Part shown: piece after piece, positions 3,696 to 39,075 of the stretch
Layout: every line of letters begins with the position of its first letter
Numbering within the stretch: the stretch's first letter is position 1
DNA from: Lachnospiraceae bacterium
GTDB taxonomy: Bacteria > Bacillota > Clostridia > Lachnospirales > Lachnospiraceae
NCBI GenBank assembly: GCA_017428265.1
Contig: JAFRRD010000016.1
Span: 1 to 44,201 of the forward strand
Direction of reading: 5' to 3'
Length of the DNA stretch: 44,201 bases
Notes under the pieces: generated by a model
What the model was told of the DNA's origin: nothing
Databases searched by the model: none
Seen by the model: the letters and a program-made list of their open reading frames with translations, nothing else
Translations under genes and position numbers: made by a program

Positions 3696-3771
3696 GAAGA
3701 TATCCTCCGTTATCTGTGAAGTCAGGCGCGGCCTCCGAAACGTCCCGGAAATGCCCTTCGCCGTCCGTTTC

Positions 3772-3801
3772 ACTATAGCACGGAAAGCCTGTGCGCCGCA
3801 A
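3772..3801 (-). promoter_or_regulatory. Probable promoter of ABC exporter 1 operon
   Basis: On the - strand TTGCGG (complement of 3796-3801) is followed after 18 bases by TATAGT (complement of 3772-3777). The likely start site is about 70 bases upstream of the TTG start codon. I see no leader ORF or attenuator here, unlike exporter 2. Confidence 0.5.
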
Positions 3802-3883
3802 GGAAAACCCGTACACCGCAAGCCAGTGCAGATCCTGCCGCCGACCGGGCCGCGCCGGAACCTGAGGTCCGCGCAATTACCTA

Positions 3884-10400: not shown

Positions 10401-10661
10401 GGGAATGTCCATGACAAGATCGTCGAATCCCAGACCGGCTTTGAATTCGATGAGAACGGCCACGTCATCGCCACCTTCTACTTCGACGTGCTTGACAAGC
10501 ATTACCTCTGCTCTTTGGATATGACTGAGGCGCTCACGAATGCCGGTGATTTCATGACCGGCGGACTGTTCTCGTTCGTCTATGACCAGATCTTCGGAAA
10601 TGTTCCGTCCGCCGAGGCTATCGTTACATTCCCGAAAGATCCGCCGCTTCCGAAGAATTAA
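7419..10661 (+). CDS. Large signal-peptide-bearing membrane protein, function unknown
   Basis: A protein of 1080 residues, not recognised as any named family. A signal peptide spans about 1-26 (KKR start, hydrophobic core, VLA-AE cleavage site). The N-terminal domain (27-265) is followed by a short TKE-rich repeat (TKETKETKETAETK, about 270-284) and a second hydrophobic segment near 306-330 rich in Ala and Gly, flanked by GKKDDDERKKK. The C-terminal 740 residues contain beta-rich regions (about 385-450, 550-640) and a helical tail (about 720-1000). If the basic cluster obeys the positive-inside rule, the N-terminal domain is outside the cell and the large C-terminal part inside. Coupled to the zinc-ribbon gene by a 4-base overlap, and ended by a strong terminator at 10691. 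A shared membrane-complex role is inferred only from coupling. Confidence 0.7.
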   Translation: MKKRIIAVILASFMLLSVTALPVLAAENSPADPFPFDKYSDKYVRLYKSGRIAHHDNVSSMEYIAEGEAFIEVYENEFNPSSKNTLRASQGVFIKFRNIPGLDYIIGKNPYFYYSIELYDEADRAKQIETWEKRAERAKLSEAARATEQYPDGDIFTEVVYESGDAIVTELRWDDYTLYNIHDPSVLTGRMHCFEMIRPIKEIPGLYIYMDIDNQESLNNSHTEFDDATFALHESWRETMMSMDYILIWKDNFQEYDENGREITESTAARETKETKETKETAETKRHESVTQHAREDTGEDSGVSIPAVIVIGVGSAAAAVGAAAAASGSGKKDDDERKKKTYKMYVKKNFGDALRRGGDPVSVCARIAEIYEGTERDRDDLTADISVSGNGLTIHGASLSGRYCETSVSVPADSKDDRATVTFTYTGEGGTFSNSIIFRVSDGPQLKFLAETAPGSGEYYPYHENCGIDAIHGDGFTYEERFLIEDAPVLPKTQDITAVNPGKFDVEFEATPNPAVFKMSVKNNTEAEEEHDIFARPEARQFEIHVTVEGEKEPLKGYVTVNLYPEGISVQSRDIGTKNGEKYVRVQAYEKDYVGDLDKKWQVSEMKLTLAVRGDDKAIINPTGTEYRIDKLKGSGGRGTWADWEESLASKYEYKESWGIWNDDFVYTFEPNANLVEPDNGFFLLLLPVEAEYDGGTFAAEVPIRLRGRDIDPMEAWEKEYAKLKERIEKFSLPDNKDHWLKKFEEMANDPKPSVEELRLTSKYVVRQYMRYWTIEGMKHRDDAEMYDVIVNYLEWAKFFGDVAFSILVDLYAGPLAEALISPAKDFFTGAIGEVIAAWNYGQEIDVDKFEFSKNLAAAGDNLVSGAIDITNWKMAAATLGCYFAYASIKNFILTLREEDKFDIYGALVKGFSDMTSQALKAAAKQLFSAWLKNCSKFRSKVSQFCGKFVTKHLGEGKFLDMRNMDGLVKDDILRKNVDALFGLAVDKLMEVAGNVHDKIVESQTGFEFDENGHVIATFYFDVLDKHYLCSLDMTEALTNAGDFMTGGLFSFVYDQIFGNVPSAEAIVTFPKDPPLPKN

Positions 10662-20529: not shown

Positions 20530-20625
20530 TTATTCTTGATCCATTCTGCTTTTCTCTCTGCCGATAAACAGAAAGACAATGAGCATGATCAAAAGCAAGA
20601 CTAGAGCAATTAGTATTCTCTCCAT
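20530..20625 (-). CDS. 31-residue single-pass membrane peptide or gene remnant
   Basis: An ATG at 20625 opens a 31-codon frame: one hydrophobic helix (about residues 4-21, LIALVLLLIMLIVFLF) followed by GREKSRMDQE. It starts two bases after the stop of the upstream 233-residue gene, with GGTGG upstream, so coupled translation is plausible. The peptide matches the last 25 residues of the 224-residue membrane protein at 23909-24583 (...LLLIMFFVFLFISREKSGMD), and the DNA is about 85% identical over 71 bases (20539-20609 with 23918-23988). It is therefore either a small membrane protein derived from that tail or the leftover end of a deleted paralog. I cannot tell which. Confidence 0.5.
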   Translation of the reverse strand: MERILIALVLLLIMLIVFLFIGREKSRMDQE

Positions 20626-20627
20626 AA

Positions 20628-21329
20628 TTATCCACCGTTTTTTTTAATGAATTTAACTTCAAAATTGCCTCTGATACTCATCCGTGCCGGTACCGGATCG
20701 GAAGTCTCGCAAATAAGCTGTTTATCGCTCCACCTCACAACATTGATATCCGTAATATCAGGAACGCATTTGCTGCATTCTTCATACAGATCGATCCACT
20801 TATCCGCTTCCACAGAGGTCATCGGATCGGTAAAATCCAACACAATGACGTCGTCCGGAGAGGCCCAGAAACAGCCGTCTACGGCTAACTGATCCGTGAT
20901 CGCGTTATAGAAACAGTCACACCAGATAAATGTCTCCTTCGGCGTTTCTCCGTACGATTCCGCGGGAAGATAGTGCATACATTCGAGCGTATTCAGATCA
21001 AGCACACTGTATCCGTACAGATCCTCATCGAAAACAAGGTAATCGCTGCCGTTGGAATGATGAATGATCTTCGCCATCCGGGACCTTCCGTCAAGGTTTT
21101 TCCATTCGAAAAGCATTTCGTCATTCTTGTACAGTCTGCAGATCTCTCCGTCGATGGGGGCATGACCGGAGATGCAGTGCTCGACATCGGCAAAGTAATA
21201 ATGCCTGACACAAAGGCCGTCTTCCAGTTCGGTGACCCTTTCCGGTTCAGCGAAGGAAATCTTGGAAAAGACCTGTTCGTCAAGGGCTTTTACTCGTTTT
21301 ATGTATTCATCAGTGCCGAAGTAATTCAT
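20628..21329 (-). CDS. Uncharacterised protein in accessory island
   Basis: About 233 residues, soluble, acidic and rich in aromatic residues. No signal peptide or membrane segment. I recognise no family or catalytic motif. The composition (many Asp/Glu, alternating strands such as YLVFDEDLYGYSVLDLNTLE) suggests a beta-rich binding protein, perhaps a partial propeller or an immunity-like protein. The start is uncertain: ATG at 21329 or GTG at 21338, both with poor Shine-Dalgarno. It follows the DUF4288-like gene by 30 bases and precedes the 31-residue peptide by two. AT content is higher than in the surrounding housekeeping genes, consistent with acquired DNA. Confidence 0.6.
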   Translation of the reverse strand: MNYFGTDEYIKRVKALDEQVFSKISFAEPERVTELEDGLCVRHYYFADVEHCISGHAPIDGEICRLYKNDEMLFEWKNLDGRSRMAKIIHHSNGSDYLVFDEDLYGYSVLDLNTLECMHYLPAESYGETPKETFIWCDCFYNAITDQLAVDGCFWASPDDVIVLDFTDPMTSVEADKWIDLYEECSKCVPDITDINVVRWSDKQLICETSDPVPARMSIRGNFEVKFIKKNGG

Positions 21330-21359
21330 TATTTTCACTAATACAATATCTATTTCTTT

Positions 21360-21749
21360 TTATTGGATTGTCTCTAATTCTTCCGGGTGTTCCGGATCCG
21401 GCCATTGTCTTAACGGCAACAGATCTTTTCTCGAACAGTCCTCTTCCCAAAAAGCCATTACAGCTTCTTCCGGCAGATCCTCCCGACACTTAATGAAAGA
21501 GGAGTAAACTTCCATCACATCATCTTCGAATACAGAAAAACAATCAGCGAAGGAAATCACTTCCGATTTCACGGTCTTTCCATACATATTTTGATAAGTA
21601 TCGTTGACGCCGTATTCCTCGACATATTGCTCAGCCTTCAGATATGCATCATCAAAAGAATCGGCGTCCAACATGATAATGGATTCTTCCAGAAAAACTT
21701 CACCGGTCTCGACGGTATGTCTGATGATTAGTTTAACGCTGTATTTCAT
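21360..21749 (-). CDS. Small DUF4288-like protein
   Basis: 129 residues, acidic, no membrane segment. The N-terminus (KYSVKLIIRHTVETG...FLEESIIMLDADSFDDAYLKAEQY) resembles DUF4288: a strand, then FEExIIxxxAxSxxxAxxKAE. Function unknown. The assignment is from memory of the pattern, not a search. The ATG overlaps the stop of the 545-residue gene by four bases (ATGA), and that gene's end supplies the AAAGGAG ribosome binding site, so the pair is translationally coupled. Confidence 0.6.
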   Translation of the reverse strand: MKYSVKLIIRHTVETGEVFLEESIIMLDADSFDDAYLKAEQYVEEYGVNDTYQNMYGKTVKSEVISFADCFSVFEDDVMEVYSSFIKCREDLPEEAVMAFWEEDCSRKDLLPLRQWPDPEHPEELETIQ

Positions 21750-23383
21750 ATATCTCCTTTGGCTGCAGGATCAAGACGCCATATATGGGTCGAGGTTACA
21801 TCAAATAAGCCGCCGTAAACCATCCCATATGTGTCCGGTCCGCGCTGTTCAACAATAAACGTTCTCTCATTTTCGGAGATCACACGGCAGATCTCGCCGG
21901 ATACGGTGAAACGGGATACAACGGTTCCCGAACTGCTGAATACCGTCAAAATGTTTTGTTTTTCGTTGACGCCGATGATCCTTCCGTCAGCGAGTATAGC
22001 CATCAGATATACCGGGATCTCCAGGGATACTTTCTGAACGCTCCCATCACGTAAATCACAGATATGTACTGATCGAAGATCAGGATCGTACCAATGATAA
22101 TTGCCACAGAAATAATCGTCTGTGAGATAAAGGCCCCACTCATATCCGTGTAATCTGCGCGTTTCATGAAGATCCTCGTCCAGGAAAACAAGTTCTTTTG
22201 CTGAACGTTTATAGTATATGAACGCACTTATTGATTGAACATATGTCAGTTCAAAAACCTCATCGGTGTATGGGATGCTTAGAAAATGAAGCAATTCACC
22301 TGTTTCGCCGTTGATCTGCCAAATCAGTGTATCTGCCTTCACAGCAGCATTTATTCCTGAAGCAAAGAGAGTGATGATGCCTTCCGGTGAACTGTAAATA
22401 TGAGTCATTACCTGGCGTGGGTGCATCGCCGGGCTGAATCGCCAACGTTCAGTTCCATCATTCCCCAAACAGCTGACATAGCCCAGTCCGGAAATAAGGG
22501 ACCATTCATATTTATTGCAATGTTCCTGAAGGGTATGATGAAACAGAATAACCTGTTCATTATTTGCCGTATTCCATACTGCACAATTTATGACATCGGG
22601 AAAAGGCCCCAAATCTTGCTTTTCTTTTGTTTCGCCGTTGAACAGAAACAAACGTGCCTGATGAGATTTATTGTCAAGGTACGGATACGCCACAAGCAAA
22701 TGACTGCCCGGGACAAGGTAGCGCTTCATATTTATTTCATAGAGCAAAGTACTGAGATCGTATTTTTGCCACTGAGGCCGGAGCATCTCCAAAAGCGATT
22801 GCCGAAGCTTCATCTCCTCCGGCCAATCCTCTCTGGCTATTTCGGTAAGCGCGAATTGGTTGGGGCGTTTCCGCAGTAATGCCTCCCGTTTTTTTATTGC
22901 TGCCACTGTTGAATCGCTTCGGGGAACCGTTCGCGCTTCCTCTTCCTGAAGATCATACAAGGCAGCGCCGACAGTTTCTTCGAGTAATTGTATTTGTTCT
23001 TCCAGACTGCAGCAGTGGGAAGCATAGCGAAAAGCCTTGGAGGGTTTATCACTCTCAAACAGTTCATTCAGTTTTTTGCCCAGTTTAGCCCAAGACGCAT
23101 CGCTTTCGCACGTGGCTTTTTTTCTCCCATCCTGATAAAAATGGCAGGAGAACAAATCGTCATCAAAGTAATCGAAAAGCAATGCAGCCGTTCCGCTTGA
23201 CTTTGTTATCCTTCCGGCCAGCCTGCCCAACCGACGCACATCGTCTATCTCTGTTTCATGAGATGGAACAACCGTAAGCCACGGCAGATTCTGATCCCGC
23301 AGAATATCTGTCGGAGCGAGCATCGGCGTTAAAGCAGAACGTGCCACTCCATATAAACTAAGAGTTGTTAATGTTGTTCCCAT
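21746..23383 (-). CDS. Uncharacterised propeller-like protein
   Basis: 545 residues. No signal peptide; a mildly hydrophobic N-terminus (TTLTTLSLYGVARSALTPML). Residues about 30-110 form a compact alpha/beta region (ALLFDYFDDDLFSCHFYQDG). A helical middle follows (about 115-225). The C-terminal half has repeating beta-strand units ending in W, F or L doublets, spaced like WD40 or PQQ propeller blades (for example WSLISGLGYVSCLGNDGTERWRF and FSSSGTVVSRFTVSGEICRV). I do not recognise the family. The start is the ATG at 23383; TTG codons upstream are less likely. It begins three bases after the stop of a truncated upstream frame (23386-23502) and overlaps the DUF4288-like gene. A 32-base piece of it recurs at 25475. 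Confidence 0.65.
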   Translation of the reverse strand: MGTTLTTLSLYGVARSALTPMLAPTDILRDQNLPWLTVVPSHETEIDDVRRLGRLAGRITKSSGTAALLFDYFDDDLFSCHFYQDGRKKATCESDASWAKLGKKLNELFESDKPSKAFRYASHCCSLEEQIQLLEETVGAALYDLQEEEARTVPRSDSTVAAIKKREALLRKRPNQFALTEIAREDWPEEMKLRQSLLEMLRPQWQKYDLSTLLYEINMKRYLVPGSHLLVAYPYLDNKSHQARLFLFNGETKEKQDLGPFPDVINCAVWNTANNEQVILFHHTLQEHCNKYEWSLISGLGYVSCLGNDGTERWRFSPAMHPRQVMTHIYSSPEGIITLFASGINAAVKADTLIWQINGETGELLHFLSIPYTDEVFELTYVQSISAFIYYKRSAKELVFLDEDLHETRRLHGYEWGLYLTDDYFCGNYHWYDPDLRSVHICDLRDGSVQKVSLEIPVYLMAILADGRIIGVNEKQNILTVFSSSGTVVSRFTVSGEICRVISENERTFIVEQRGPDTYGMVYGGLFDVTSTHIWRLDPAAKGDI

Positions 23384-23385
23384 AG

Positions 23386-23502
23386 TCAAACTTTCCAATG
23401 CTTCGGTTTAAGACCATCAATCAGTATTACCGACAGTTTTCCGTCAGATGAATACGGCATCAATGCCTCTTTAAACTCCGGAATGCTCTGAAAAAGTAAC
23501 TG
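23386..23502 (-). pseudogene. C-terminal remnant of a deleted gene
   Basis: Directly upstream of the 545-residue gene, the - strand is open from 23502 to a TGA at 23388-23386. It encodes a protein-like tail of 38 residues ending KLSVILIDGLKPKHWKV. No start codon with a ribosome binding site fits, and an in-frame stop bounds its 5' side. The stop lies two bases before the next ATG, the spacing of an operon junction. The simplest reading is that an upstream operon gene was deleted, leaving only its end. Confidence 0.5.
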
Positions 23503-23520
23503 TCAACGTAACACTTTTTA

Positions 23521-23841
23521 TTACACCGTAATGCGCTTTTCCTCAATGGCTTTTTTCAGCCATTCAGCAGCGCGATGGATTTTTTCTCGAGGTGATCCGC
23601 TTCTTTGATCAAATTCATTTATGTATTCATCGGCATCAAAACCTAGCGAATTGGAATCATATATGAATATGGTAATAGGGTCTTGTTCAGCTAGTTCATT
23701 GTAGAGAACCTTTATTTTTTTATTTGTATTCCTCCAAGTGATGAAATACCACGATCCACGCTTCTGCTTCATGTATATATCAAATCCATAAGTTTTTGCT
23801 AAAAACATAAATTCTCTTTTTATCGTTGCATATCTTCCCAT
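23521..23841 (-). CDS. Small uncharacterised basic protein
   Basis: 106 residues, no membrane segment. Aromatic, Lys-rich beta strands in the first half (FDIYMKQKRGSWYFITWRNTNKKIKVLYNEL) and a helical tail (PREKIHRAAEWLKKAIEEKRITV). Good Shine-Dalgarno: GAGGGGG 9 bases before ATG. A plausible promoter precedes it at 23868-23896. No family recognised. Its size and setting would fit an immunity protein or small regulator, which is only a guess. Confidence 0.6.
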   Translation of the reverse strand: MGRYATIKREFMFLAKTYGFDIYMKQKRGSWYFITWRNTNKKIKVLYNELAEQDPITIFIYDSNSLGFDADEYINEFDQRSGSPREKIHRAAEWLKKAIEEKRITV

Positions 23842-23867
23842 ATGTTTTTACCCCCTCATTGTATTTT

Positions 23868-23896
23868 AATACATTCATAATACGATTACCTGTCAA
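23868..23896 (-). promoter_or_regulatory. Possible promoter for the 106-residue gene
   Basis: On the - strand a perfect TTGACA (complement of 23891-23896), a 17-base spacer and TGTATT (complement of 23868-23873), in AT-rich DNA. Confidence 0.4.
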
Positions 23897-23908
23897 AGGG
23901 TGTAAGCT

Positions 23909-24583
23909 TTATGCGCTATCCATTCCGCTTTTCTCTCTGCTGATAAATAGAAAGACAAAGAACATGATCAGAAGCAAGGCTAAAGCATAAAAAGGACTAT
24001 TATACAGGAATGATTCCAATGGGACTTCCTGGTCTGAATGCACATAATCATAATACACGCTGACCAATACTATACAGGTTATTGTAAAGATAACGGAGGA
24101 AACAGCCATAATGATCAAATAGTTGTTCCGGATCCGGAGTCTTTCCTGAACCGGTTTTTGCACCAGAGACAAAACAGTCAATGAAATCGTGATCAGGCTG
24201 ATGATAATAGCGGTATAATAACATTCTTCCCGTCCCCATGTTGCGATGGTGATTCCTGTCAGGAAATAGACCGGCATAAACAGCATAAGGACATCATCGA
24301 TTCGTTTTTCCTTATGATGAAACATAAACAGCCATAAAACCAAATAAGCCAGCGCGGTGATCGCCGCCATACACATCCCAAATACCCAGGACATTCTCGA
24401 CAGCGGAACAAATGCTCCAAATGCAGTAAGTACCCAGAAAACCAGGATAATGATGATACATACTTTGGTTCGCTTCCTGTAAAACAGCGCTTTTTCAGCC
24501 GGCGAGGCCTCATTGTTTCTGCTGTCAGTTAAAACAATGGCACAGATGACCAGAACAAATAAGAGGGGAAAATACCGTAACAT
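23909..24583 (-). CDS. Polytopic membrane protein, unknown function
   Basis: 224 residues with six or seven hydrophobic helices: about 3-20, 43-60, 68-90, 98-116, 122-140, 155-177 and 192-215. Loops are short and no catalytic motif is visible. The tail after the last helix reads REKSGMDSA. The same tail and helix recur in the 31-residue ORF at 20530-20625, which marks a duplication within the island. The start is the ATG at 24583 with AAAGGAAG upstream. It follows the 266-residue gene by 41 bases and may be co-transcribed with it. Confidence 0.65.
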   Translation of the reverse strand: MLRYFPLLFVLVICAIVLTDSRNNEASPAEKALFYRKRTKVCIIIILVFWVLTAFGAFVPLSRMSWVFGMCMAAITALAYLVLWLFMFHHKEKRIDDVLMLFMPVYFLTGITIATWGREECYYTAIIISLITISLTVLSLVQKPVQERLRIRNNYLIIMAVSSVIFTITCIVLVSVYYDYVHSDQEVPLESFLYNSPFYALALLLIMFFVFLFISREKSGMDSA

Positions 24584-24624
24584 AGCAAGTAGCTTCCTTT
24601 CTTTTTTACTGGATTATGCGTCTA

Positions 24625-25425
24625 TTATTTCACAGGCTGAGAGCCCGTCCATGTGTTTCCTCCAAGGGATGGAGACTGCCACCACAAAAAATCGCGAAAG
24701 ATAAGATCTGCAGAAAGGAGAAAAAGCACGTCGCTTTCATCTTCGGGTTCATACTGAAGTTGATATGCTCCGATACTTTCTCCGTTTTTGTTCAGATTAT
24801 CGATAACTGCCAGGCATTGGTTCGCAGCTGCATTGATCGTATCGATATCTGGCGTCGTTCCTTTTTCATCTTTATATGAAAGAGTTACTTGATAGCCTCC
24901 TAAAGAATACTCACTGCACTCTAAGACTTCAAGCGACAGACCGTTTTGCCGGAAGCTTTCTTTTAATGCAGCAACTGTTTCTTCTTTTGAGTGAGTGGGT
25001 TTGTTCTCTGAAATATAGAGCGATTCCGTATTATCCTTTGAAATCGTTTCAAAATTCATTAGTTTCTGATCATACAGGACTGTTCCGTTTGGACTGACAA
25101 TCACTTGTCTAAGAGCTGAATAACGATGGAAAAGCCGCGGGCTTCTCATCGCCTCGAAGCGAGCCTGCTCTCTCTCCGCCCTGATGAGAAGCATGTCCTG
25201 GATCCCAAGAATCTTTTCCTGATCTGTTGTTGCTGTATAGCAAACGATTCCGTCCTGGAAACTGACGTTTTGCAGTTGGAGATATCCCTGAGATCGTAAC
25301 TCTTCTTTCATCCGGGATGATCGTTCAGTAATGTTGCGTTCAGTTAAGACTTTAACAGTTAAAAATGATATACAAAGGAATAATATTATTCCTAATATTG
25401 CAAATACTATTTTTTTGGTTCTCAT
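24625..25425 (-). CDS. Membrane-anchored extracytoplasmic protein, unknown function
   Basis: 266 residues. An N-terminal KKIVFAILGIILFLCISFLTVKVL helix-type segment (about residues 4-27) would be a membrane anchor or uncleaved signal. No proper lipobox precedes the Cys. The remaining 235 residues should be outside the cell: mixed alpha/beta with a stretch around 145-200 (EETVAALKESFRQNGL...GYQVTLSYKDEKG) and a C-terminal end rich in Trp and Gly. No family recognised. First gene of the island reading away from tRNA-Ala. Shine-Dalgarno is weak. Confidence 0.6.
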   Translation of the reverse strand: MRTKKIVFAILGIILFLCISFLTVKVLTERNITERSSRMKEELRSQGYLQLQNVSFQDGIVCYTATTDQEKILGIQDMLLIRAEREQARFEAMRSPRLFHRYSALRQVIVSPNGTVLYDQKLMNFETISKDNTESLYISENKPTHSKEETVAALKESFRQNGLSLEVLECSEYSLGGYQVTLSYKDEKGTTPDIDTINAAANQCLAVIDNLNKNGESIGAYQLQYEPEDESDVLFLLSADLIFRDFLWWQSPSLGGNTWTGSQPVK

Positions 25426-25474
25426 CTTTTTAACCCATAATCAGATAATATGTTTTATCATTAGATGTTTATTT

Positions 25475-25506
25475 TTCATATTCATTGCAATGTTCCAGAA
25501 GGGTAT
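25475..25506 (-). pseudogene. 32-base relic of the propeller-like gene
   Basis: This stretch matches 22505-22536, inside the 545-residue gene, at 30 of 32 bases. Translated in the same sense it gives TLLEHCNEYE against TLQEHCNKYE. It is the remains of a second, otherwise deleted copy. Confidence 0.6.
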
Positions 25507-25583
25507 CTGCTTTTCTTATACCACTTTCTCCAGGCTTTTTCAATTTAAGAAAGGTAACCGCACGTAACCCGTTCAAAAACAAC

Positions 25584-25606
25584 AAAAAACCGCATAAAAA
25601 TGCGGT
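25584..25606 (-). terminator. Intrinsic terminator beside the tRNA-Ala 3' fragment
   Basis: On the - strand ACCGCA (complement of 25601-25606), loop TTTTTA, TGCGGT (complement of 25589-25594), then a T-run. It lies 10 bases past the duplicated tRNA 3' end at 25616-25632, as expected for a former tRNA transcription unit. Confidence 0.6.
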
Positions 25607-25615
25607 AAAAGAAAG

Positions 25616-25632
25616 TGGAGCATAGGGGATTC
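25616..25632 (-). repeat. Duplicated 3' end of tRNA-Ala (17 bases)
   Basis: TGGAGCATAGGGGATTC is identical to 25799-25815, the acceptor and T-arm end of the tRNA gene. The two copies are 183 bases apart in the same orientation. Either this is an attachment-site repeat left by an integrated element or the residue of a second tRNA-Ala gene. Confidence 0.7.
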
Positions 25633-25752
25633 CCCGACTCGGCGCCGGAGGCGCCTCGCTGGATAGTTCCGGCAGCTGCATCTCAGCGCCTTGCAGGCTC
25701 GATCTGCAGGCCGTCACAGAGAACCCCTGCGGGGTTCTCATCCATCGTACCG

Positions 25753-25797
25753 TTTTTATTGCAAAAGCCGGCTATTCGCCGGCTTTTGCAATAAAAA
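25753..25797. terminator. Long perfect hairpin after tRNA-Ala
   Basis: A perfect 20-bp stem (25753-25772 with 25778-25797), loop TATTC. The GC core AGCCGGC/GCCGGCT is followed on each strand by TTTT within the stem, so it can act as a terminator in both directions, but the T-runs are themselves paired. It ends two bases from the tRNA 3' end. Confidence 0.6.
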
Positions 25798-25798
25798 A

Positions 25799-25871
25799 TG
25801 GAGCATAGGGGATTCGAACCCCTGACCTCCACACTGCCAGTGTGGCGCGCTCCCAGCTGCGCTAATGCCCC
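25799..25871 (-). tRNA. tRNA-Ala(GGC)
   Basis: The complement folds as a 73-base tRNA. Acceptor GGGGCAT pairs with ATGCTCC, including the G3-U70 pair that identifies alanine tRNA. The D-arm is GCGCAGCTGGGAGCGC, the anticodon stem CCACA/TGTGG holds loop CTGGCAG with anticodon GGC, and the T-arm is AGGGG-TTCGAAT-CCCCT. The discriminator base is A; the CCA tail is not encoded, and TTTTTT follows. No other tRNA is adjacent. Confidence 0.97.
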
Positions 25872-25973
25872 AGACGAGGAGTATTGTATCACAGCCGAAA
25901 AAAAATGCAAGCACTTTTTTCCGAAATATTGTATATTAAAAATACACGATCCTGGCAAGTGAAAGGAACCCCT

Positions 25974-26810
25974 ATGTTTCCCTCTTACAACATGGCTACG
26001 ACGATGAAGAGTTCAACGATGGAGAACGATATCGTTCTCGCGGCGAAGGCCGGTTTCCGACATATCGAACTGCGGAAGGAAAAACTGCTGAATTTTCTGC
26101 AGCGGGGCGGTACCCTGACCGGTCTGAAAACGCTTCTTGAAGATAACGGCATCAAGCCGATGTGCATCAACGCCCTGGCGGACATCAGTTTCCACAAGGG
26201 GCAGTCGCGCACGACGGTGCAGGAGCTCTGCCACTTCCTCTGCTACGCGGGGCAGTTCGTCGGCTGTCCGGATCTGGAGGTGATCGCAGCCTTCGGCGCG
26301 CCGACCGATGACCGTGAGGAGGTCACGGCGGAGACGGCAGGCGTGCTGGCCGAGCTTTCGAAGATCGCAGCGGACTATCACATGCGCCTTGCTCTGGAAT
26401 ACATGGGCGTTCCGAAAAACAGCGTGCGGACCTATGCCCACGCCATGGAGATCGTGGAACGGACCGGCGCGGACAACGTCGGCCTGCTGGTCGATACCTG
26501 GCATCACTTTGCCGGCGGCTCGAAGCCGGAGGAACTGCTCGGCCCCGGTTCGGATAAGATTTTTACCGTCCATATCGGCGACGCGCCGGACAAAGCGCCT
26601 CTTACGCTTCGCCGGAACGAATGCATCTGGCCGGGTGACGGCGCCGCTCCCATCCCGGAAATGCTCCGGAACCTGAAGAAGGTCGGATACGAAGGCATCG
26701 TCTCCGTCGAGATCTTCGATCCGGGCGTGCAGGCGATGGATCCCGGGTTCTGCATTCCGCTTGCCTATGAACGCACCGCGCAGGTCATGAAAGCAGCCGG
26801 CGTGCTGTAA
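25974..26810 (+). CDS. Sugar phosphate isomerase/epimerase-like TIM-barrel protein
   Basis: 278 residues of the xylose-isomerase-like TIM-barrel superfamily (AP endonuclease family 2 fold), which includes IolE, hydroxypyruvate isomerase and sugar epimerases. Metal-ligand patterns are visible: LALEYMG near 138 (Glu), LLVDTWHHF near 175-183 (Asp and His), FTVHIGDAP near 200-208 (His and Asp) and VSVEIFDPG near 245 (Glu). The reaction cannot be assigned; likely ketose epimerisation or isomerisation with a divalent metal. The start is the ATG at 25974 with AAAGGAAC just upstream, rejecting an ORF start 90 bases earlier near the tRNA. It stands alone between tRNA-Ala and REP-like repeats. Confidence 0.85.
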   Translation: MFPSYNMATTMKSSTMENDIVLAAKAGFRHIELRKEKLLNFLQRGGTLTGLKTLLEDNGIKPMCINALADISFHKGQSRTTVQELCHFLCYAGQFVGCPDLEVIAAFGAPTDDREEVTAETAGVLAELSKIAADYHMRLALEYMGVPKNSVRTYAHAMEIVERTGADNVGLLVDTWHHFAGGSKPEELLGPGSDKIFTVHIGDAPDKAPLTLRRNECIWPGDGAAPIPEMLRNLKKVGYEGIVSVEIFDPGVQAMDPGFCIPLAYERTAQVMKAAGVL

Positions 26811-33693: not shown

Positions 33694-33722
33694 TGGAAAA
33701 CATACTTTTCTTTTGCTATAAT
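33694..33722 (+). promoter_or_regulatory. Extended -10 promoter of the TIR-propeller gene
   Basis: TGGAAA (33694-33699), a 17-base spacer and TGC-TATAAT (TATAAT 33717-33722), an extended -10 with a weak -35. It is 63 bases upstream of the start codon. Confidence 0.55.
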
Positions 33723-33785
33723 CGCTTTCGGATACGACGCAAAATCAGGCTGCAGCAATGCGGCCGCCAACCGGCGAGGTACGGC

Positions 33786-36700
33786 ATGGAACGAAAATAC
33801 AAAGCTTTTATCAGCTATCGGCATCTGCCCCTGCAGATGGAAGTGGCCAAGGCGGTCCACCGGCGGATCGAGCATTACACCGTCCCGAAAAACCTGCAGA
33901 AAGACGGCTCACGCAAAGTGGGTCTGGTTTTCCGTGATCAGGATGAACTGCCGATCGCGGGAAGCCTGTCCGCCAATATTCAGACGGCCCTGGACAACTC
34001 GGAGTTTCTGATCGTCATCTGTACGCCCGAGACGTCCGGCTCGCAGTGGGTGCTTCGGGAGATCAGCTATTTCCTGGAACATCATGACCACGATCATGTC
34101 CTGGCTGTACTGGCAGACGGGGAGCCGGACGAAGCATTTCCGAAACAGATCACCGAGATCCGCAATGATGACGGCGAACTGATCGAGATCGTGGAACCGC
34201 TTGCCGCCAACATCGCGGCACCGACGAAGGCCAAACGCCGCAAACTGTTCCAGACGGAATCCCTGCGCATCCTGGCTGCCCTCATCGGCTGCCCTTATGA
34301 CGCCTTATACCGCCGCGAGCAGCGCTACCGTTTCCGCCGCCTGGCTGTCGCCTCCGGCCTCGTCCTCGGCCTGGCCGCCGCATTCGTAGGCCTTCTGCTT
34401 AACCGTAATGCGAAGATCCGGGATCAGCTGCGGGCTTCTCAGATCAATGAATCCAAAGCCCTAGCGGCACTCAGCCTTGCCTCGTTCAAAAACGGCAATT
34501 ACCGTGAAGCGCTGTCTTCCGTGCTGGAAGCCCTGCCGTCCGAGGATAATGACCGGCCTTATGTTGCGGATGCAGAGTATACTCTGAGACAGGAAATTTC
34601 ACTTTTTTCCAGGGGAGGCCTGGATTTTGACCAGTCCGTCACGCAGCCGGCAGCCGTCTCAAAAATGCTGATGTCACGCGATACCGGGTTTCTCGCCACA
34701 ATGGACGCTTCCAATATGATCCGCGTCTATGATACGTATTCGGGAAAGCTGCTTTGGGAAAAACAGCGCAAGCGGGACATTGATTTTGAATATGTCGATG
34801 CGCAGCAGGCTGTCTTTGCCGGCGGGGAACTGCTGGATGCGGCAACGGGTGAGCAGCTCTGGGACCTTGGGATCAGTTATAATCATTCGGCCTTTTCCCG
34901 AAACGGACTTTATGCGGCCTTCAGTATATACTATGAAAGCCAGGACTATCTTTGCATTGCGGATGCCAAAACAGGAGAGATCCTCCGCAGCTGCGCTCTG
35001 AAAGACAATCTCTTTACGATAACGGCGCTCGCTGTCAGTGACGACGGGCTCCGTGCAGCTGTCAGTTCGGCTTCTTCAAGCCAGGCTCACGGCGTTCTGC
35101 AGCTTTTTGATGCGGAGAATGACTCGCTTCTGACTCTGGATGATCAGCTGCCTTTCTCCATGGGGATCCTTCGCGAACTGATGTTTCTGGATGACGGAAG
35201 CCTGCTGACCGCCTTTGCCGGAACGGGAGATGACAACGGCGGCGTGACCGTATATGACAGGGATCAAAGCTGGGCGAAGCGATTTGATACGGCGCTCAGG
35301 TTGGACCAGAATTCCGTCTATATGAACGGAAAACTGATCATGAGCGGCAGTATCGATTTTCTCGATTTTTCCGCGAACAGTATCATTTACGGCAGTCTGA
35401 AAAATCTCTATCTGATCGACAGGGAAACCGGGGAGATCACCATGGATCTGCTCCTGCCGGATGTCATCTGCGGCGGGATCCTCAACGAGAATGATTCTTA
35501 CGGCCTGATCCTTGAAAACGGTCTGATCACAGGCGGGATCTCCAGCGGCATCCTGACCAGAGATGCGGGAATGTTCTATGAAGACCTGGACTTTTCCCTG
35601 TTCAAAGGCGTCATAGGCGGCCAATCATACCGCTCGGGCGTTTTTGCCGTGGTAAACGATGATTACAAGACGACGATCTCGATCCTGCGCTGGCAGCAGG
35701 GGAAGGATCTGGAACCGGTCGTTCCCGAAGAGACGGAAATGGATCTGTCAAGAGCCAGGATTTATGCCTCTCCTTCCGGAAAACTGATGGCGGCTGTGCA
35801 TTACGCTTCTTCCGAAAAAGTCCTGTCCTTTATGCTGTGGCATGCAGCAGACCCGGAGCCTCAGTTTTATACGCTGCAGTGTGACGCCTCATTTATCTAT
35901 GATCCCGGTGATATTTTCCTGACTGAAGACGGAAAGCTGATCGCGGGGGATTATCTCTTCGATCCCGCGGGCGGAACGGTCTCCGGACTGACACCGTCCG
36001 GAAAAACGCCGGTAGAACTGGATCTGTACTCCTTTCAGCATAACGCCCGTTCGGTATACGACCTCCGTGACAACAGCGTGTTTTCGGCAGCGCTGATCAA
36101 CACGGATACGAAGGAGCCGCCTCAGATCAGTCTGTGGAAAGACGGCAGTCAGCTCAGAACGGTTACTTTCCCGGATGATCTTTATGCCTGGCAGCTCCGC
36201 TATATGGTCTGTGCCGCAGGACGCAATGACTGGGTGATCCTGACGACATCCGTCCGCGAAGGAGATGTCCCGGAAACGGTATCGGACTCTTATGCGTATA
36301 ACGTAAAGGAAGACCGGTTCATTGCACTGACACAGCTTGCGCGGGAGCATGCTTTCACGTGCGACCTGGCGGAGAACAGCCCGCTCCTCGCAGCCGTCGG
36401 CGAGAACGGCAGCATTCTGCTGGTGAACATCCCGGACGATACCGTAACGAAAACACTGGAGACCGGCATACCGTCTTCCGCGATCGCGAAACTGCTTTTT
36501 GTGAAAGATGACACACTGCTGCTTGTGATGAGCACATCCGGGGAGCTGCTGATCTATGACGTGCAGACGGGCAAACAGCTCAGCCGCGCCTATTTCGGTG
36601 ACAGAAACTTCAGTTTTCATCTCAGCGCATGCTTTACACCGGTGTTTTCCGCAGACGGGCGGCAGCTGCTGCTCATCGTAAACGACGATATGTATACCGA

Positions 36701-36899
36701 ATCGGTCGCCATCTGCATGGAAACGGAAAACTGGAACTGTGTGGAGATACGTATCAGCGCGGCACATTATCTGCCGGACAGCAATCAGCTGATCATCAAA
36801 CCGTATCAGGGCGATATCTATTACACTCCCTTATATTCCCGGGAGGAAATCATGGAAAGAGCCAAAGCTGTTCTGAACAGGGAACCGCTCGCTCCTTAA
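33786..36899 (+). CDS. TIR-TM-beta-propeller receptor-like protein
   Basis: 1037 residues. A TIR domain occupies about 1-170: KAFISYRH at 6-13, GLVFRDQDELPIAGS at 46-60, and SGSQWVLREISYF at 84-96, whose Glu92 aligns with the catalytic Glu of TIR NAD-cleaving enzymes. One membrane helix follows (about 186-206), preceded by RREQRYRFRR, which should hold the TIR domain inside. A short helical stretch (210-275) leads to about 750 residues of repeating beta units that look like WD40/PQQ propeller blades (for example IRVYDTYSGKLLWEK and VLQLFDAENDSLLTL), expected outside. This gives the topology of a surface receptor. The start is the ATG at 33786 (GAGG 6 bases upstream). Followed 116 bases later by an ECF sigma factor gene. 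Confidence 0.85.
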   Translation: MERKYKAFISYRHLPLQMEVAKAVHRRIEHYTVPKNLQKDGSRKVGLVFRDQDELPIAGSLSANIQTALDNSEFLIVICTPETSGSQWVLREISYFLEHHDHDHVLAVLADGEPDEAFPKQITEIRNDDGELIEIVEPLAANIAAPTKAKRRKLFQTESLRILAALIGCPYDALYRREQRYRFRRLAVASGLVLGLAAAFVGLLLNRNAKIRDQLRASQINESKALAALSLASFKNGNYREALSSVLEALPSEDNDRPYVADAEYTLRQEISLFSRGGLDFDQSVTQPAAVSKMLMSRDTGFLATMDASNMIRVYDTYSGKLLWEKQRKRDIDFEYVDAQQAVFAGGELLDAATGEQLWDLGISYNHSAFSRNGLYAAFSIYYESQDYLCIADAKTGEILRSCALKDNLFTITALAVSDDGLRAAVSSASSSQAHGVLQLFDAENDSLLTLDDQLPFSMGILRELMFLDDGSLLTAFAGTGDDNGGVTVYDRDQSWAKRFDTALRLDQNSVYMNGKLIMSGSIDFLDFSANSIIYGSLKNLYLIDRETGEITMDLLLPDVICGGILNENDSYGLILENGLITGGISSGILTRDAGMFYEDLDFSLFKGVIGGQSYRSGVFAVVNDDYKTTISILRWQQGKDLEPVVPEETEMDLSRARIYASPSGKLMAAVHYASSEKVLSFMLWHAADPEPQFYTLQCDASFIYDPGDIFLTEDGKLIAGDYLFDPAGGTVSGLTPSGKTPVELDLYSFQHNARSVYDLRDNSVFSAALINTDTKEPPQISLWKDGSQLRTVTFPDDLYAWQLRYMVCAAGRNDWVILTTSVREGDVPETVSDSYAYNVKEDRFIALTQLAREHAFTCDLAENSPLLAAVGENGSILLVNIPDDTVTKTLETGIPSSAIAKLLFVKDDTLLLVMSTSGELLIYDVQTGKQLSRAYFGDRNFSFHLSACFTPVFSADGRQLLLIVNDDMYTESVAICMETENWNCVEIRISAAHYLPDSNQLIIKPYQGDIYYTPLYSREEIMERAKAVLNREPLAP

Positions 36900-37015
36900 G
36901 TGAAGTTATCGGAGCCGGATGACGTGTCCGCTTCGTATTCAGTTTGTATCCATTTGAAGTTTCCGGTCATATTTCCTGCCGGATGCCGTCTATAAAGACA
37001 GAGGAGGTTATTCGT

Positions 37016-37576
37016 ATGGATGACGATAAGATCGTGCAGCTTTTCCTGGCCAGAGATGAAGCCGCCATACGGGAATCATCGGCAAAATACGGAAATTACT
37101 GCTATCTGATCGCGCACCGCATCCTCGGAGATCCCGACGATGCCGACGAATGTGTCAATGATACCTGGCTCCGGGCCTGGAATGCGATCCCGCCGCAGGA
37201 ACCGGCTTCCCTGTCCCTCTTTTTCGGAAAGATCACAAGGAACCTTGCCATCGACCGTTACCGGGAAGCGCACCGGATCAAACGGGGAAGCGGAGAACGA
37301 TTTCTCGCCCTGGACGAACTCGGCGATCTTGTCTCCGGGAGCGACAGCCCCGAAGCGATGCTGCAGGCAGATGAACTGAAGGCGGATATCAACCGTTTTC
37401 TGCTGTCTCTTCCGCAGGAAAAGCGCTATATGTTCATCCTGCGCTACTGGTATGCCGAAAAGATCGCGAACATTGCCGTTCGCTTCAGTATGACGCCGAA
37501 TCATGTCTCCGTCATTTTAAAGCGGATCAGGAAGCAGCTGAAGCACTATCTGCAAAAGAGAGGATATGACTTATGA
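37016..37576 (+). CDS. ECF-type RNA polymerase sigma factor
   Basis: 186 residues. Region 2 (about 10-80: YGNYCYLIAHRILGDPDDADECVNDTWLRAWNAIPP, then FFGKITRNLAIDRYR) and region 4 (about 120-180: LSLPQEKRYMFILRYWYAEKIANIAVRFSMTPNHVSVILKRIRKQLKHYL, a helix-turn-helix) match sigma-70 family ECF factors. The start is the ATG at 37016 with a strong GAGGAGG 8 bases upstream. It overlaps the serpin gene by four bases (ATGA), the arrangement typical of a sigma factor and its membrane anti-sigma factor. I could not identify an autoregulated promoter with confidence. Confidence 0.93.
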   Translation: MDDDKIVQLFLARDEAAIRESSAKYGNYCYLIAHRILGDPDDADECVNDTWLRAWNAIPPQEPASLSLFFGKITRNLAIDRYREAHRIKRGSGERFLALDELGDLVSGSDSPEAMLQADELKADINRFLLSLPQEKRYMFILRYWYAEKIANIAVRFSMTPNHVSVILKRIRKQLKHYLQKRGYDL

Positions 37577-39003
37577 AGAAAGAAGATCTGTTTGAGCTCC
37601 TGTCGGATATAGATGAGAAAAGCGTGCAGGAAGCGCAGGACTTCAGCGTAAAGAAAACGCCGCTGTGGAAAGGCTGGGGCATTTACGGCGCCCTGGCAGC
37701 CATGATCGTTCTGGCCGTCCTAATCATGCCGCTGTTTGGAAAACGCGGACAGCAGGGACAGACAGCCGGGGTGAAGACCGTGCTTGCTGCCGCGCCGGAA
37801 GCTGTCGGCGAAGGCATGAGTTCCGCCGATTTTGTGTACAGTGACGCCTATCAGAAATGGAGTACGGAGCAGGCGGCGGTTCGTGAAAAGGCGTCAGCCG
37901 TCAGCGGGAACACCCTCGCATACTGCAGCGCGCTGATGCAGCAAGTCCTTGCCTCTCCGGATAAGAACACTGTCTGCTCGCCGCTCAACACCTATTTTGC
38001 CCTGGCGATGCTGGCTGAGACCTGCGACGGCAACAGCAGGAAACAGATCCTGGACATGCTTGGTGCGGCGGACATTGAAAACCTGAGGGAGGCCGTTTCC
38101 GCCCTCTGGAACGCCAACTGCGTGGAGACGCCCCTGGTCACCAGTCTTCTTGCGGACTCGCTCTGGCTGGATTCTTCCGTCGAATTTAAAGAGACGACCC
38201 TGCAGACACTGGCGGATATTTACCATGCCTCCTCTTTCCGCGGCAAAACCGGCTCCGGGGAAATGGATAAAGCCCTGCAGGACTGGACGAACGACGCGAC
38301 CGGCGGCCTACTGGCCGATTACGTCAGAGATCTGACGCTAGATCCGGCCACGGTCATGGCTCTCATGTCCACACTGTACTATAAAACCGAATGGTATGAG
38401 GCTTTCGATAAAGCAAATACAGTCCCTATGACCTTTCACGGCGCGAAAGGCGATACCACCGTTCAGATGATGAAAAAAGACGTCGGGTCGTATGTACAAA
38501 CCGACAGTTTTACAGCAGTCGGGCTGAGCCTTAAAGGCGGAAACATGTATTTTTATCTGCCGCAGGAAGGCGTCAGCGTCAATGCGCTTCTCTCCGATCC
38601 GGATGTGCTGAAAAGCGTGAGCAGCGACGGAGCCGGTCTCTGGACCTATGCCGACATCAATCTGCTGCTGCCCCGTTTCAAAGTTTCGGCAAAGACCGAC
38701 CTCATCCCCACGCTGGAAGCACTCGGCGCAACAGACGTCCTGAATCCCGCCAGGGCTGATTTTTCGCCGCTCACAAAAGATCCGATGGGCCTGTATGTCG
38801 GCAAGGTGGAACACGCTGCCATGGTCGAGATCGACGAGGAGGGCGTGACCGGCGCCGCCTATACGCTGATTGCCCTTTATACAGGGATCCACGATCCGAA
38901 GCCTGAATTTGACCTCGTCTTCGACCGGCCTTTCCTCTTCATGGTCACCAGTGCTGACGGCAGCATCCTCTTTACCGGGGTCGTACGAAATATTACAGAA
39001 TAA
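37573..39003 (+). CDS. Membrane-anchored serpin, in the anti-sigma factor position
   Basis: 476 residues. The N-terminal 33 residues (KKEDLFELLSDIDEKSVQEAQ...) are helical, charged and cytosolic, as in small anti-sigma factors. One membrane helix lies at about 36-54. Residues about 105-476 form a full serpin: CSPLNTYFALAMLAE, LYYKTEWYEAF, FYLPQEGVSVNALL, and a hinge with EEGVTGAAYTLIAL before the reactive loop. The FDLVFDRPFLFMVTSADGSILFTGVV end is the serpin signature. The small-residue hinge suggests an inhibitory serpin acting on a protease outside the cell. The gene overlaps the sigma factor gene by four bases. This fusion would let loss of the serpin or membrane anchor free the sigma factor, an inference. 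Ends with a terminator. Confidence 0.9.
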   Translation: MKKEDLFELLSDIDEKSVQEAQDFSVKKTPLWKGWGIYGALAAMIVLAVLIMPLFGKRGQQGQTAGVKTVLAAAPEAVGEGMSSADFVYSDAYQKWSTEQAAVREKASAVSGNTLAYCSALMQQVLASPDKNTVCSPLNTYFALAMLAETCDGNSRKQILDMLGAADIENLREAVSALWNANCVETPLVTSLLADSLWLDSSVEFKETTLQTLADIYHASSFRGKTGSGEMDKALQDWTNDATGGLLADYVRDLTLDPATVMALMSTLYYKTEWYEAFDKANTVPMTFHGAKGDTTVQMMKKDVGSYVQTDSFTAVGLSLKGGNMYFYLPQEGVSVNALLSDPDVLKSVSSDGAGLWTYADINLLLPRFKVSAKTDLIPTLEALGATDVLNPARADFSPLTKDPMGLYVGKVEHAAMVEIDEEGVTGAAYTLIALYTGIHDPKPEFDLVFDRPFLFMVTSADGSILFTGVVRNITE

Positions 39004-39048
39004 GCCTGCACCGCACAGCGTGTTCCATGATGCGTCTGCAGATTTCAG

Positions 39049-39075
39049 GAGGAGGTCTTCCCCTCCTCTTTTTTG
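39049..39075 (+). terminator. Terminator of the sigma factor-serpin operon
   Basis: GAGGAGG (39049-39055), loop TCTTCC, CCTCCTC (39062-39068), then TTTTTT. Confidence 0.85.

What the first reader, a model, noticed from the sequence alone, without database searches (positions are those of the whole stretch)
33694..39075. TIR receptor, ECF sigma factor and membrane serpin form one candidate signalling block
Three unusual parts lie in a row on one strand, between an unrelated divergent operon and an unrelated metabolic gene: a TIR protein with an apparent extracellular propeller, a sigma factor, and a serpin tethered to the membrane in the anti-sigma position. Together they could sense an outside protease or ligand and switch gene expression or NAD level. 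A 116-base gap separates the TIR gene from the sigma gene, so linkage is not proven. The resemblance to serpin-Toll logic in animals is only an analogy.
Basis: partly seen in the sequence, partly recalled or inferred. Interest (0 to 1): 0.75.

Follow-up and report, generated by a model that had tools for sequence, protein, structure and literature searches.

The report
Serpin-bearing anti-sigma factor beside TIR gene
A rumen gut bacterium appears to use a serpin, a one-shot protease trap best known from animals, as the outside part of the membrane protein that holds a gene switch (a sigma factor) silent; the neighbouring TIR gene looks like an unrelated neighbour.

Summary
In detail: TIR-membrane-propeller gene (33786-36899), ECF sigma gene (37016-37576), membrane serpin gene (37573-39003). 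The three-gene block is not supported. In the same slot one congener has the TIR gene alone, another the sigma-serpin pair alone; of 23 TIR genes read in the genus only the window's is directly beside an ECF gene. The pair is real and recurrent: 34 of 85 serpin ORFs in 16 genus genomes directly follow an ECF gene and have an N-terminal tail plus membrane segment; 43 of the other 51 look like lipoproteins. The tail marks ECF partners: 20 of 20 non-serpin proteins fetched for it directly follow an ECF gene, and 3 carry DUF3298, the ectodomain of the lysozyme receptor RsiV. ECF-linked serpins are not one clade (AU p 2e-8). The hinge is conserved; the reactive loop diverges overall, though not in every orthologue pair. 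Most likely an RsiV-like anti-sigma receptor with a serpin as sensor. Sigma binding, protease inhibition and signalling are untested. New variant of a known kind.

The parts
33694..33722 (+). housekeeping-type promoter (TGGAAA-17-TATAAT) of the slot, upstream of the TIR gene
   Evidence: 4 such sites found, 3.5 expected by shuffling, so the scan alone is weak; conserved in three congeners whether TIR or ECF follows
33786..36899 (+). TIR - membrane segment - propeller-like protein, 1037 aa; judged an independent neighbour, not part of the pair
   Evidence: separability
36965..36994 (+). ECF-type promoter candidate of the sigma-serpin operon: degenerate -35 (GGTCAT), 16-bp spacer, -10-like CGTCTATA (36987-36994)
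   Evidence: read; -10 and leader shared with G009; -35 not shared; the motif counted is NOT met here
37016..37576 (+). ECF sigma factor, 186 aa
   Evidence: Pfam Sigma70_r2 and r4_2, TIGR02937
37573..39003 (+). serpin-bearing candidate anti-sigma factor, 476 aa, overlapping the sigma gene by 4 bp
   Evidence: PF00079 206.9 bits
37573..37647 (+). N-terminal partner tail (MKKEDLFELLSDIDEKSVQEAQDFS)
   Evidence: of the 33 other ECF-linked serpins in the genus 30 have a tail that reads alike and 3 (C41 type) a different one; matched by alignment A1 in 20 non-serpin proteins that all follow ECF genes
37675..37740 (+). membrane segment, about residues 35-56
   Evidence: hydropathy maximum at residue 39
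37924..38991 (+). serpin domain, residues 118-473
   Evidence: nearest solved chains by sequence conserpin and tengpin
38836..38910 (+). hinge and reactive-centre loop (EEGVTGAAYTLIALYTGIHDPKPEF)
39047..39070 (+). terminator-like hairpin behind the serpin gene
   Evidence: 7 found, 5.8 expected by shuffling

Best explanation
The sigma and serpin genes form a two-gene ECF sigma / membrane anti-sigma unit in which the sensor outside the cell is a serpin. The short cytoplasmic tail holds the sigma factor (inferred). The single membrane helix carries a serpin domain with a conserved hinge and an overall diverging reactive loop. When a target protease attacks the loop, the serpin traps it or is cut and changes shape; this exposes the anti-sigma protein to site-1 cleavage near the membrane (perhaps by signal peptidase, as in RsiV) and then to the site-2 protease, and sigma is freed (all inferred). 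The TIR gene is a separate neighbour. The confidence given is for the core, a sigma/anti-sigma unit whose serpin senses protease; the cleavage steps and the replacement loop are less sure.
For: 34 of 85 serpin ORFs in 16 genus genomes directly follow an ECF gene on the same strand, and all 34 have a tail plus membrane segment; of the other 51, 43 have a lipobox, 4 are cut by contig ends, 4 are other. 20 of 20 non-serpin proteins fetched for the same tail follow ECF genes; 3 of these 20 carry DUF3298, the ectodomain family of RsiV, which represses sigmaV, binds and inhibits lysozyme, and is remade by sigmaV (PMC5014341, passages). ECF-linked serpins are not one clade: AU p 2.4e-8; two groups nest among lipoprotein serpins. 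Mean pairwise identity: hinge 0.58, body 0.36, loop core 0.21. ECF-type promoter motif upstream of 21 of 34 ECF genes vs 3.8 in shuffles. The strict form TGTTAC-N16/17-CGWYNNTA occurs twice in the own genome, both times before a sigma-serpin pair (reversed control pattern 1). A site-2 protease gene is present.
Against: No binding, inhibition or signalling was tested. The window's own pair lacks the promoter motif; 2 of the 21 motif matches lie under 35 bp from the start and look like chance; outside the genus the motif is not enriched (1 of 22 vs 1.7 shuffled). Among 8 orthologue pairs the loop is less alike than the body in 6 (one by 0.01) but more alike in 2 (C2/G009 0.92 vs 0.76; C35/G009 0.93 vs 0.90). 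The hinge of most ECF-linked serpins departs from the lipoprotein form GTRAAAVTAV (V at P14, Y at P9; numbering recalled), so fast loop insertion is not assured. The tail has no Pfam match. Three linked serpins (C41 type) have a different tail. One serpin with such a tail (L273) has no ECF hit in the stretch held upstream. 9 of 34 linked proteins have a lipobox-like string inside the membrane segment. The overlaps lean on the script, which took the start codon nearest to a 4-bp overlap. No structure could be predicted.
Confidence: 0.5

Rival explanations
1. It is an ECF anti-sigma factor with a serpin ectodomain, but sensing does not use serpin inhibition: an outside protease simply cuts the exposed loop or stalk, which itself acts as site-1 cleavage, and the serpin fold is a convenient bait.
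For: Same genomic evidence as the best explanation; the hinge is unorthodox.
Against: The hinge is better conserved than the serpin body while the loop diverges overall (0.58, 0.36 and 0.21), the pattern expected (recalled) of working inhibitors with changing targets; a bait needs no conserved hinge.
Confidence: 0.2
2. The serpin is only an effector: a membrane-tethered inhibitor whose tail regulates sigma in response to something else, such as envelope stress, with no sensing by the serpin domain.
For: In B. breve serpin expression uses a separate protease-inducible two-component system (PMC8012564, passages). In L291 an ECF gene is followed by a separate 176-aa membrane protein and only then a serpin.
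Against: In sister proteins with the same kind of tail the ectodomain differs, and RsiV, whose domain family 3 of 20 carry, is a sensor; serpins were joined to ECF partners more than once.
Confidence: 0.17
3. One reading: TIR receptor, sigma and serpin act as one pathway.
For: Same strand, 116-bp gap in the window; in G001 a TIR orthologue (73%) lies 2.1 kb before a different ECF-serpin pair with a lipoprotein gene between.
Against: G011 has TIR only and G009 the pair only in the same slot; of 23 TIR genes read in the genus only the window's is adjacent to an ECF gene; the gap has its own -10-like element.
Confidence: 0.04
4. The serpin gene is merely co-transcribed with sigma and has no regulatory part.
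For: None beyond the lack of direct tests.
Against: All 34 ECF-linked serpins carry a tail and membrane segment, and 43 of the 51 others begin with a lipoprotein signal instead; the tail marks ECF partners without serpins too.
Confidence: 0.06

Closest known systems
RsiV-SigV of Bacillus subtilis and Clostridioides difficile (PMC5014341, passages read; PMC9044953, search listing only)
   Same: ECF sigma with membrane anti-sigma whose ectodomain, per PMC5014341, binds and inhibits the enzyme it senses and is remade by the freed sigma; DUF3298, the RsiV ectodomain family, sits on the same kind of tail in 3 of 20 sister proteins
RsgI anti-SigI factors of Clostridium thermocellum and relatives (PMC3413522, passages)
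   Same: many paralogous sigma/anti-sigma pairs with different sensing ectodomains
   Different: SigI is not an ECF sigma of this group (recalled); the RsgI ectodomains described there sense polysaccharides
Bacterial secreted serpins (siropins, B. longum serpin, C. thermocellum serpins; PMC6718151, passages)
   Same: serpin domain; protease inhibitors
   Different: described there as secreted or cellulosomal inhibitors; one C. thermocellum serpin is called a membrane protein, with no sigma link stated in the passages seen
Protease-inducible serpin control in Bifidobacterium breve (PMC8012564, passages)
   Same: serpin gene linked to a protease-responsive regulator
   Different: a separate two-component system, not a serpin that is itself the regulator

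Membership tests
ECF sigma / membrane anti-sigma pair | ECF gene with Sigma70 regions 2 and 4 | tested here: met
   window sigma over cut-off for r2 and r4_2; of 13 other ECF genes checked 13 match r2, one of them (L106) just under its cut-off, and some have no r4 match over cut-off
ECF sigma / membrane anti-sigma pair | partner gene directly downstream, translationally coupled | tested here: met
   4-bp overlap in the window; in 34 genus pairs 25 overlap by 4 bp, 6 by 8, 3 by 11, with starts chosen nearest to 4
ECF sigma / membrane anti-sigma pair | cytoplasmic tail shared among partners of this ECF group, then one membrane helix | tested here: met
   31 of 34 genus tails alike, 3 different; 20 of 20 non-serpin bearers follow ECF genes
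ECF sigma / membrane anti-sigma pair | tail binds and inhibits sigma | not testable with these tools
   needs binding and reporter assays
ECF sigma / membrane anti-sigma pair | autoregulatory ECF-type promoter | tested here: inconclusive
   21 of 34 genus pairs vs 3.8 shuffled, post hoc; the window pair not met; outside the genus 1 of 22
RsiV family | DUF3298 ectodomain | tested here: not met
   Serpin is the only Pfam match over its cut-off in the window protein and three paralogues
RsiV family | site-1 cleavage by signal peptidase then site-2 protease | tested here: inconclusive
   [AV]xA string within 35 aa after the membrane segment in 30 of 34 (18.7 in shuffles), 19 of 25 outside the genus (10.8), but 5 of 20 non-serpin proteins (6.6); site-2 protease gene present
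Serpin | serpin family PF00079 | tested here: met
   206.9 bits vs cut-off 27
Serpin, inhibitory | hinge of small residues and full-length loop | tested here: inconclusive
   long loop and conserved hinge, but V at P14 and Y at P9 (numbering recalled)
Serpin, inhibitory | covalent protease trapping | not testable with these tools
   needs enzyme assays
TIR protein | TIR domain with the WxxxE glutamate (recalled as the NADase residue) | tested here: met
   PF13676 over cut-off; motif seen in all 23 genes read in the genus; activity not tested
Serpin-Toll-like pathway | TIR receptor and serpin linked | tested here: not met

The most novel reading that the evidence does not exclude
A serpin used as a signalling receptor: the protease's own attack springs the serpin, and that shape change is passed through one membrane helix to free a sigma factor, whose main job is to remake the spent serpin. 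It would be a single-use fuse with a built-in replacement order, assembled more than once in Lachnospiraceae and related Clostridia by putting serpins onto anti-sigma tails.
Probability: 0.36. Interest if true: 0.85.

Novelty: new variant of a known kind. Interest (0 to 1): 0.72.

Why it matters
Serpins are known as inhibitors, carriers and chaperones; a serpin as the sensor of a bacterial anti-sigma factor would be a new use of the fold and a direct route by which gut bacteria could read protease activity. It also gives the physiological role of bacterial serpins, called elusive in the review seen in passages (PMC6718151), a testable place: part of them would be regulators. The genomic pattern is strong enough for a simple test in a relative whose record is not marked as a metagenome assembly (Lachnospiraceae bacterium YSD2013, L143).

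Tried and rejected
Three-gene block: rejected on synteny. Wide regulon by promoter motif: the strict motif gave only two own-genome sites, both before pairs (reversed control 1); the looser one gave 24 sites in 16 genomes, 6 before ECF-serpin pairs, 1 before a secreted protein and an ECF-less serpin beside such a pair (G007 C27), 17 elsewhere, and the reversed control pattern had 50 hits, so the looser motif is not informative alone. Tandem lipoprotein serpins near pairs in G004, G005 and G006 as a local regulon: an opposite-strand gene lies between, and no shared promoter was looked for systematically. The genus motif as a rule outside the genus: not met (1 of 22); a TGTAAG-N15/17-[CT]G[TG] form was then counted in 11 of 25, chosen by eye and without a control. 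Signal-peptidase site as a shared feature of all partners: not enriched in non-serpin partners. ECF tree: placement of the four non-serpin ECFs of the own genome is unsure because of long branches. Pfam gave no ectodomain for 15 of 20 sister proteins (1 more only a DUF4179 match under its cut-off) and none below E 0.01 for 4 of 4 in the own genome.
Full report
What is there. The window is contig C8 of a 2.16-Mb, 52-contig genome, 95% complete. On the + strand lie a TIR - membrane segment - propeller-like gene (33786-36899), an ECF sigma gene (37016-37576) and a serpin gene (37573-39003). The sigma and serpin genes overlap by 4 bp. Upstream, on the other strand, are a TadA-like deaminase, an aldo-keto reductase, an MscS channel and an ABC exporter gene; downstream is alanine dehydrogenase, behind a terminator-like hairpin.

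The TIR gene is separable. The same slot, between the deaminase and alanine dehydrogenase genes, was read in two congeners. G011 (L073) has the TIR orthologue (76%) and no sigma-serpin pair in the slot; a different pair lies about 8.5 kb away on the other strand. G009 (L074) has the sigma-serpin orthologues (84% and 54% by blastp) and no TIR gene in the slot; it has a distant TIR gene elsewhere. Alignments show that the flanks and the TATAAT promoter are shared by all three, that window and G011 then run on into TIR, that G009 breaks off after TATAAT into the sigma leader, and that window and G009 share the sigma leader with CGTCTATA. In the 16 genus genomes 13 have a TIR match; 23 TIR genes were read with their neighbourhoods, some cut by contig ends; an ECF gene is directly adjacent only in the window. 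In G001 an ECF gene lies 2.1 kb away behind a lipoprotein gene, and two more stretches (L073, L078) hold one farther off on the other strand.

The sigma-serpin pair is a recurrent unit. All serpin places listed with the window serpin in 16 genus genomes (16 of 16 have matches) were fetched and classified. Of 85 serpin ORFs, 34 directly follow an ECF gene on the same strand: 25 overlap by 4 bp, 6 by 8, 3 by 11; the script took the start codon nearest to a 4-bp overlap, so the exact overlaps lean that way. All 34 have an N-terminal tail followed by a membrane segment; 31 tails read alike, 3 (C41 type) differ. Of the 51 others, 43 have a lipobox near the N-terminus, 4 are cut at the 5' end by the contig, and 4 are different: two membrane serpins without the tail, one tail-less serpin beside a pair, and one without a recognised signal. 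By the same rule 9 of the 34 linked proteins have a lipobox-like string, but inside the membrane segment behind a long charged tail. In the own genome 4 of 8 serpins are ECF-linked (C2, C8, C35, C41). The ECF calls were made with a profile built here; Pfam agrees for the window and for 13 of 13 further ECFs checked (in one, L106, region 2 is just under the cut-off).

Beyond the genus. A scan of named genomes gave 36 loci with 37 serpin ORFs, 19 ECF-linked, including Lachnospiraceae bacterium YSD2013 (L143) and MAGs named Oscillospiraceae (L146, L171) and Christensenellaceae (L155); 3 of the 19 are genus genomes seen before; no TIR match lay in these loci. In 200 family genomes (200 genera, own included), 93 match; in the 30 loci returned, 12 of 32 serpin ORFs are ECF-linked, one of them the own genome's, so 11 further genera; in 4 of the 12 the genes do not overlap but lie 17-71 bp apart; 14 of the other 20 have a lipobox-like string. 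In 391 class genomes, 151 match at 1e-30; in 29 loci read, 3 of 33 serpin ORFs are ECF-linked (L274, L279, L293), one (L291) follows an ECF gene with a separate membrane protein gene between, and one (L273) has a similar tail without an ECF hit; 16 of the 29 without any ECF hit have a lipobox-like string. So ECF-serpin pairs are common in this genus, scattered in the family and rare in the class sample read.

The tail is an ECF-partner module. In the own genome four ECF genes of the same group are followed by non-serpin membrane proteins with similar tails. In the family search many matches covered only the tail. I fetched 20 of the 22 that I counted in the printed table: all 20 are directly downstream of an ECF gene, 18 with a 4-bp overlap. 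Pfam finds DUF3298 in 3 (L263, L264, L267), DUF4349 in 1, a DUF4179 match under its cut-off in 1 more, and nothing at E 0.01 in 15. DUF3298 is the RsiV ectodomain family; PMC5014341 (passages) reports that RsiV represses sigmaV, binds and inhibits lysozyme, is cut by signal peptidase and then RasP, and is produced by active sigmaV. So the serpin sits where sister proteins carry an RsiV-type or other ectodomain. That the tail binds sigma is inferred.

Repeated recruitment. In a tree of 83 of the 85 serpin domains, 30 of the 34 ECF-linked serpins fall in one group of 35; the other 4 nest among lipoprotein serpins: three from G004, G005 and G006, close to the tandem lipoprotein serpins beside them, and one from G012, sister (support 94, not starred) to that genome's own lipoprotein serpin. 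Seven changes of label are needed, six forced by starred branches, 26.5 on average in shuffles. The unrooted count cannot tell gain from loss; nesting makes gains the simpler reading. A single clade of ECF-linked serpins is rejected (AU p 2.4e-8, quick tree; the label came from gene neighbourhood, not from the tree). The ECF tree, with long branches, suggests two swaps: the G012 sigma groups (98) with sigmas whose serpins are of the main type, so that one serpin seems to have been replaced by another on the same sigma lineage; and the C41-type serpins, in the window's own serpin group, are paired with a very different sigma and tail.

The serpin domain. Nearest solved chains by sequence are conserpin and tengpin. 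Mean pairwise identity in ECF-linked serpins is 0.36 in the body, 0.58 in the hinge and 0.21 in the loop core; in the others 0.41, 0.71 and 0.33; window against its G009 orthologue 0.59, 0.88 and 0.33. Of the 8 orthologue pairs looked at, the loop is less alike than the body in 6 (in one by 0.01) and more alike in 2 (C2/G009 0.92 vs 0.76, C35/G009 0.93 vs 0.90). A conserved hinge with an overall diverging loop suggests working inhibitors with changing targets, but not in every lineage. Against inhibition, the hinge of most linked serpins (GVSAASY, GVTGAAY) departs from the lipoprotein form GTRAAAVTAV.

Promoters. [TA]AC-N16/17-CG[TA] occurs within 110 bp of 21 of 34 genus ECF genes, 3.8 (sd 1.9, max 11 of 300 runs) in dinucleotide shuffles (post hoc); 2 of the 21 lie under 35 bp from the start and look like chance. 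The strict form TGTTACN16-17CGWYNNTA occurs in the own genome exactly twice, before the C2 and C35 pairs; the reversed control pattern occurs once. A looser form in the 16 genomes gave 24 sites, 6 of them before ECF-serpin pairs, against 50 for the reversed control. This favours autoregulation and does not show a wide regulon. The window pair has only a degenerate form; outside the genus the genus form is absent (1 of 22) and a TGTAAG form was counted in 11 of 25, chosen by eye and without a control. Hence autoregulation of the window pair itself is inferred from its sisters.

Mechanism and confidence. Shown: gene order, overlap, shared tail, membrane segment, serpin domain, recurrence, more than one joining. 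Inferred: sigma binding (about 0.85), protease sensing through the serpin (about 0.5), regulated intramembrane proteolysis (about 0.45), self-replacing loop (about 0.4). The best-supported reading is an RsiV-like receptor with a serpin in place of the lysozyme-binding domain. It works like RsiV; it is not an RsiV family member, since DUF3298 is absent.

Literature. Searches of the held library for serpin with anti-sigma factor (9 papers) and with extracytoplasmic function (4 papers), and the 20 listed of 1,590 for serpin, sigma factor and related terms, showed none whose title or abstract start describes a serpin anti-sigma factor; passages of PMC3413522 and PMC3990059 mention serpins and anti-sigma factors separately. 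PMC8233489 (term search) has no occurrence of the word sigma. The library lacks most subscription papers, so absence there is weak evidence of novelty.

Noticed in passing
upstream of ECF genes in the genus, e.g. L078 (G000 C2), L088 (G004 C32): A palindrome-centred TGAAR-4-YTT string (TGAAAGCGCTTT, TGAAAACGTTTT and others) lies near the promoter of 13 of 34 ECF-serpin pairs, 0.045 on average in 200 shuffles (post hoc); it looks like a cre/LacI-type operator (recalled), and B. longum serpin is under carbohydrate control.
   Followed up: partly
L095 (G007 C27), 2327-3814: A membrane serpin without the tail lies beside an ECF-serpin pair, behind a 276-aa secreted protein that has an ECF-type promoter site 44 bp upstream: a possible regulon member.
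   Followed up: partly
L291, turned strand 279-2622: ECF gene, then a 176-aa membrane protein, then a secreted serpin in one run: sigma, separate candidate anti-sigma and serpin.
   Followed up: no
L106, L107, L108: Tandem lipoprotein serpins lie a few kb behind ECF-serpin pairs with the same serpin type, with an opposite-strand gene between.
   Followed up: partly
L072 7508-9457: A 649-aa lipoprotein-like gene lies between a TIR-propeller gene and an ECF-serpin pair in G001.
   Followed up: no
window 20600-26000: Stretch of low G+C (0.43-0.49 against about 0.58) with ORFs that lack Pfam matches (two tested: 21746-23398 and 24625-25425, minus strand); possible acquired island.
   Followed up: no
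window 7419-10661: A 1080-aa open frame without a Pfam match, overlapped by an 871-aa frame on the other strand; which one is coding was not settled.
   Followed up: no
L224 (G006 C29): The TIR-propeller gene of this congener is interrupted by a stop codon.
   Followed up: no
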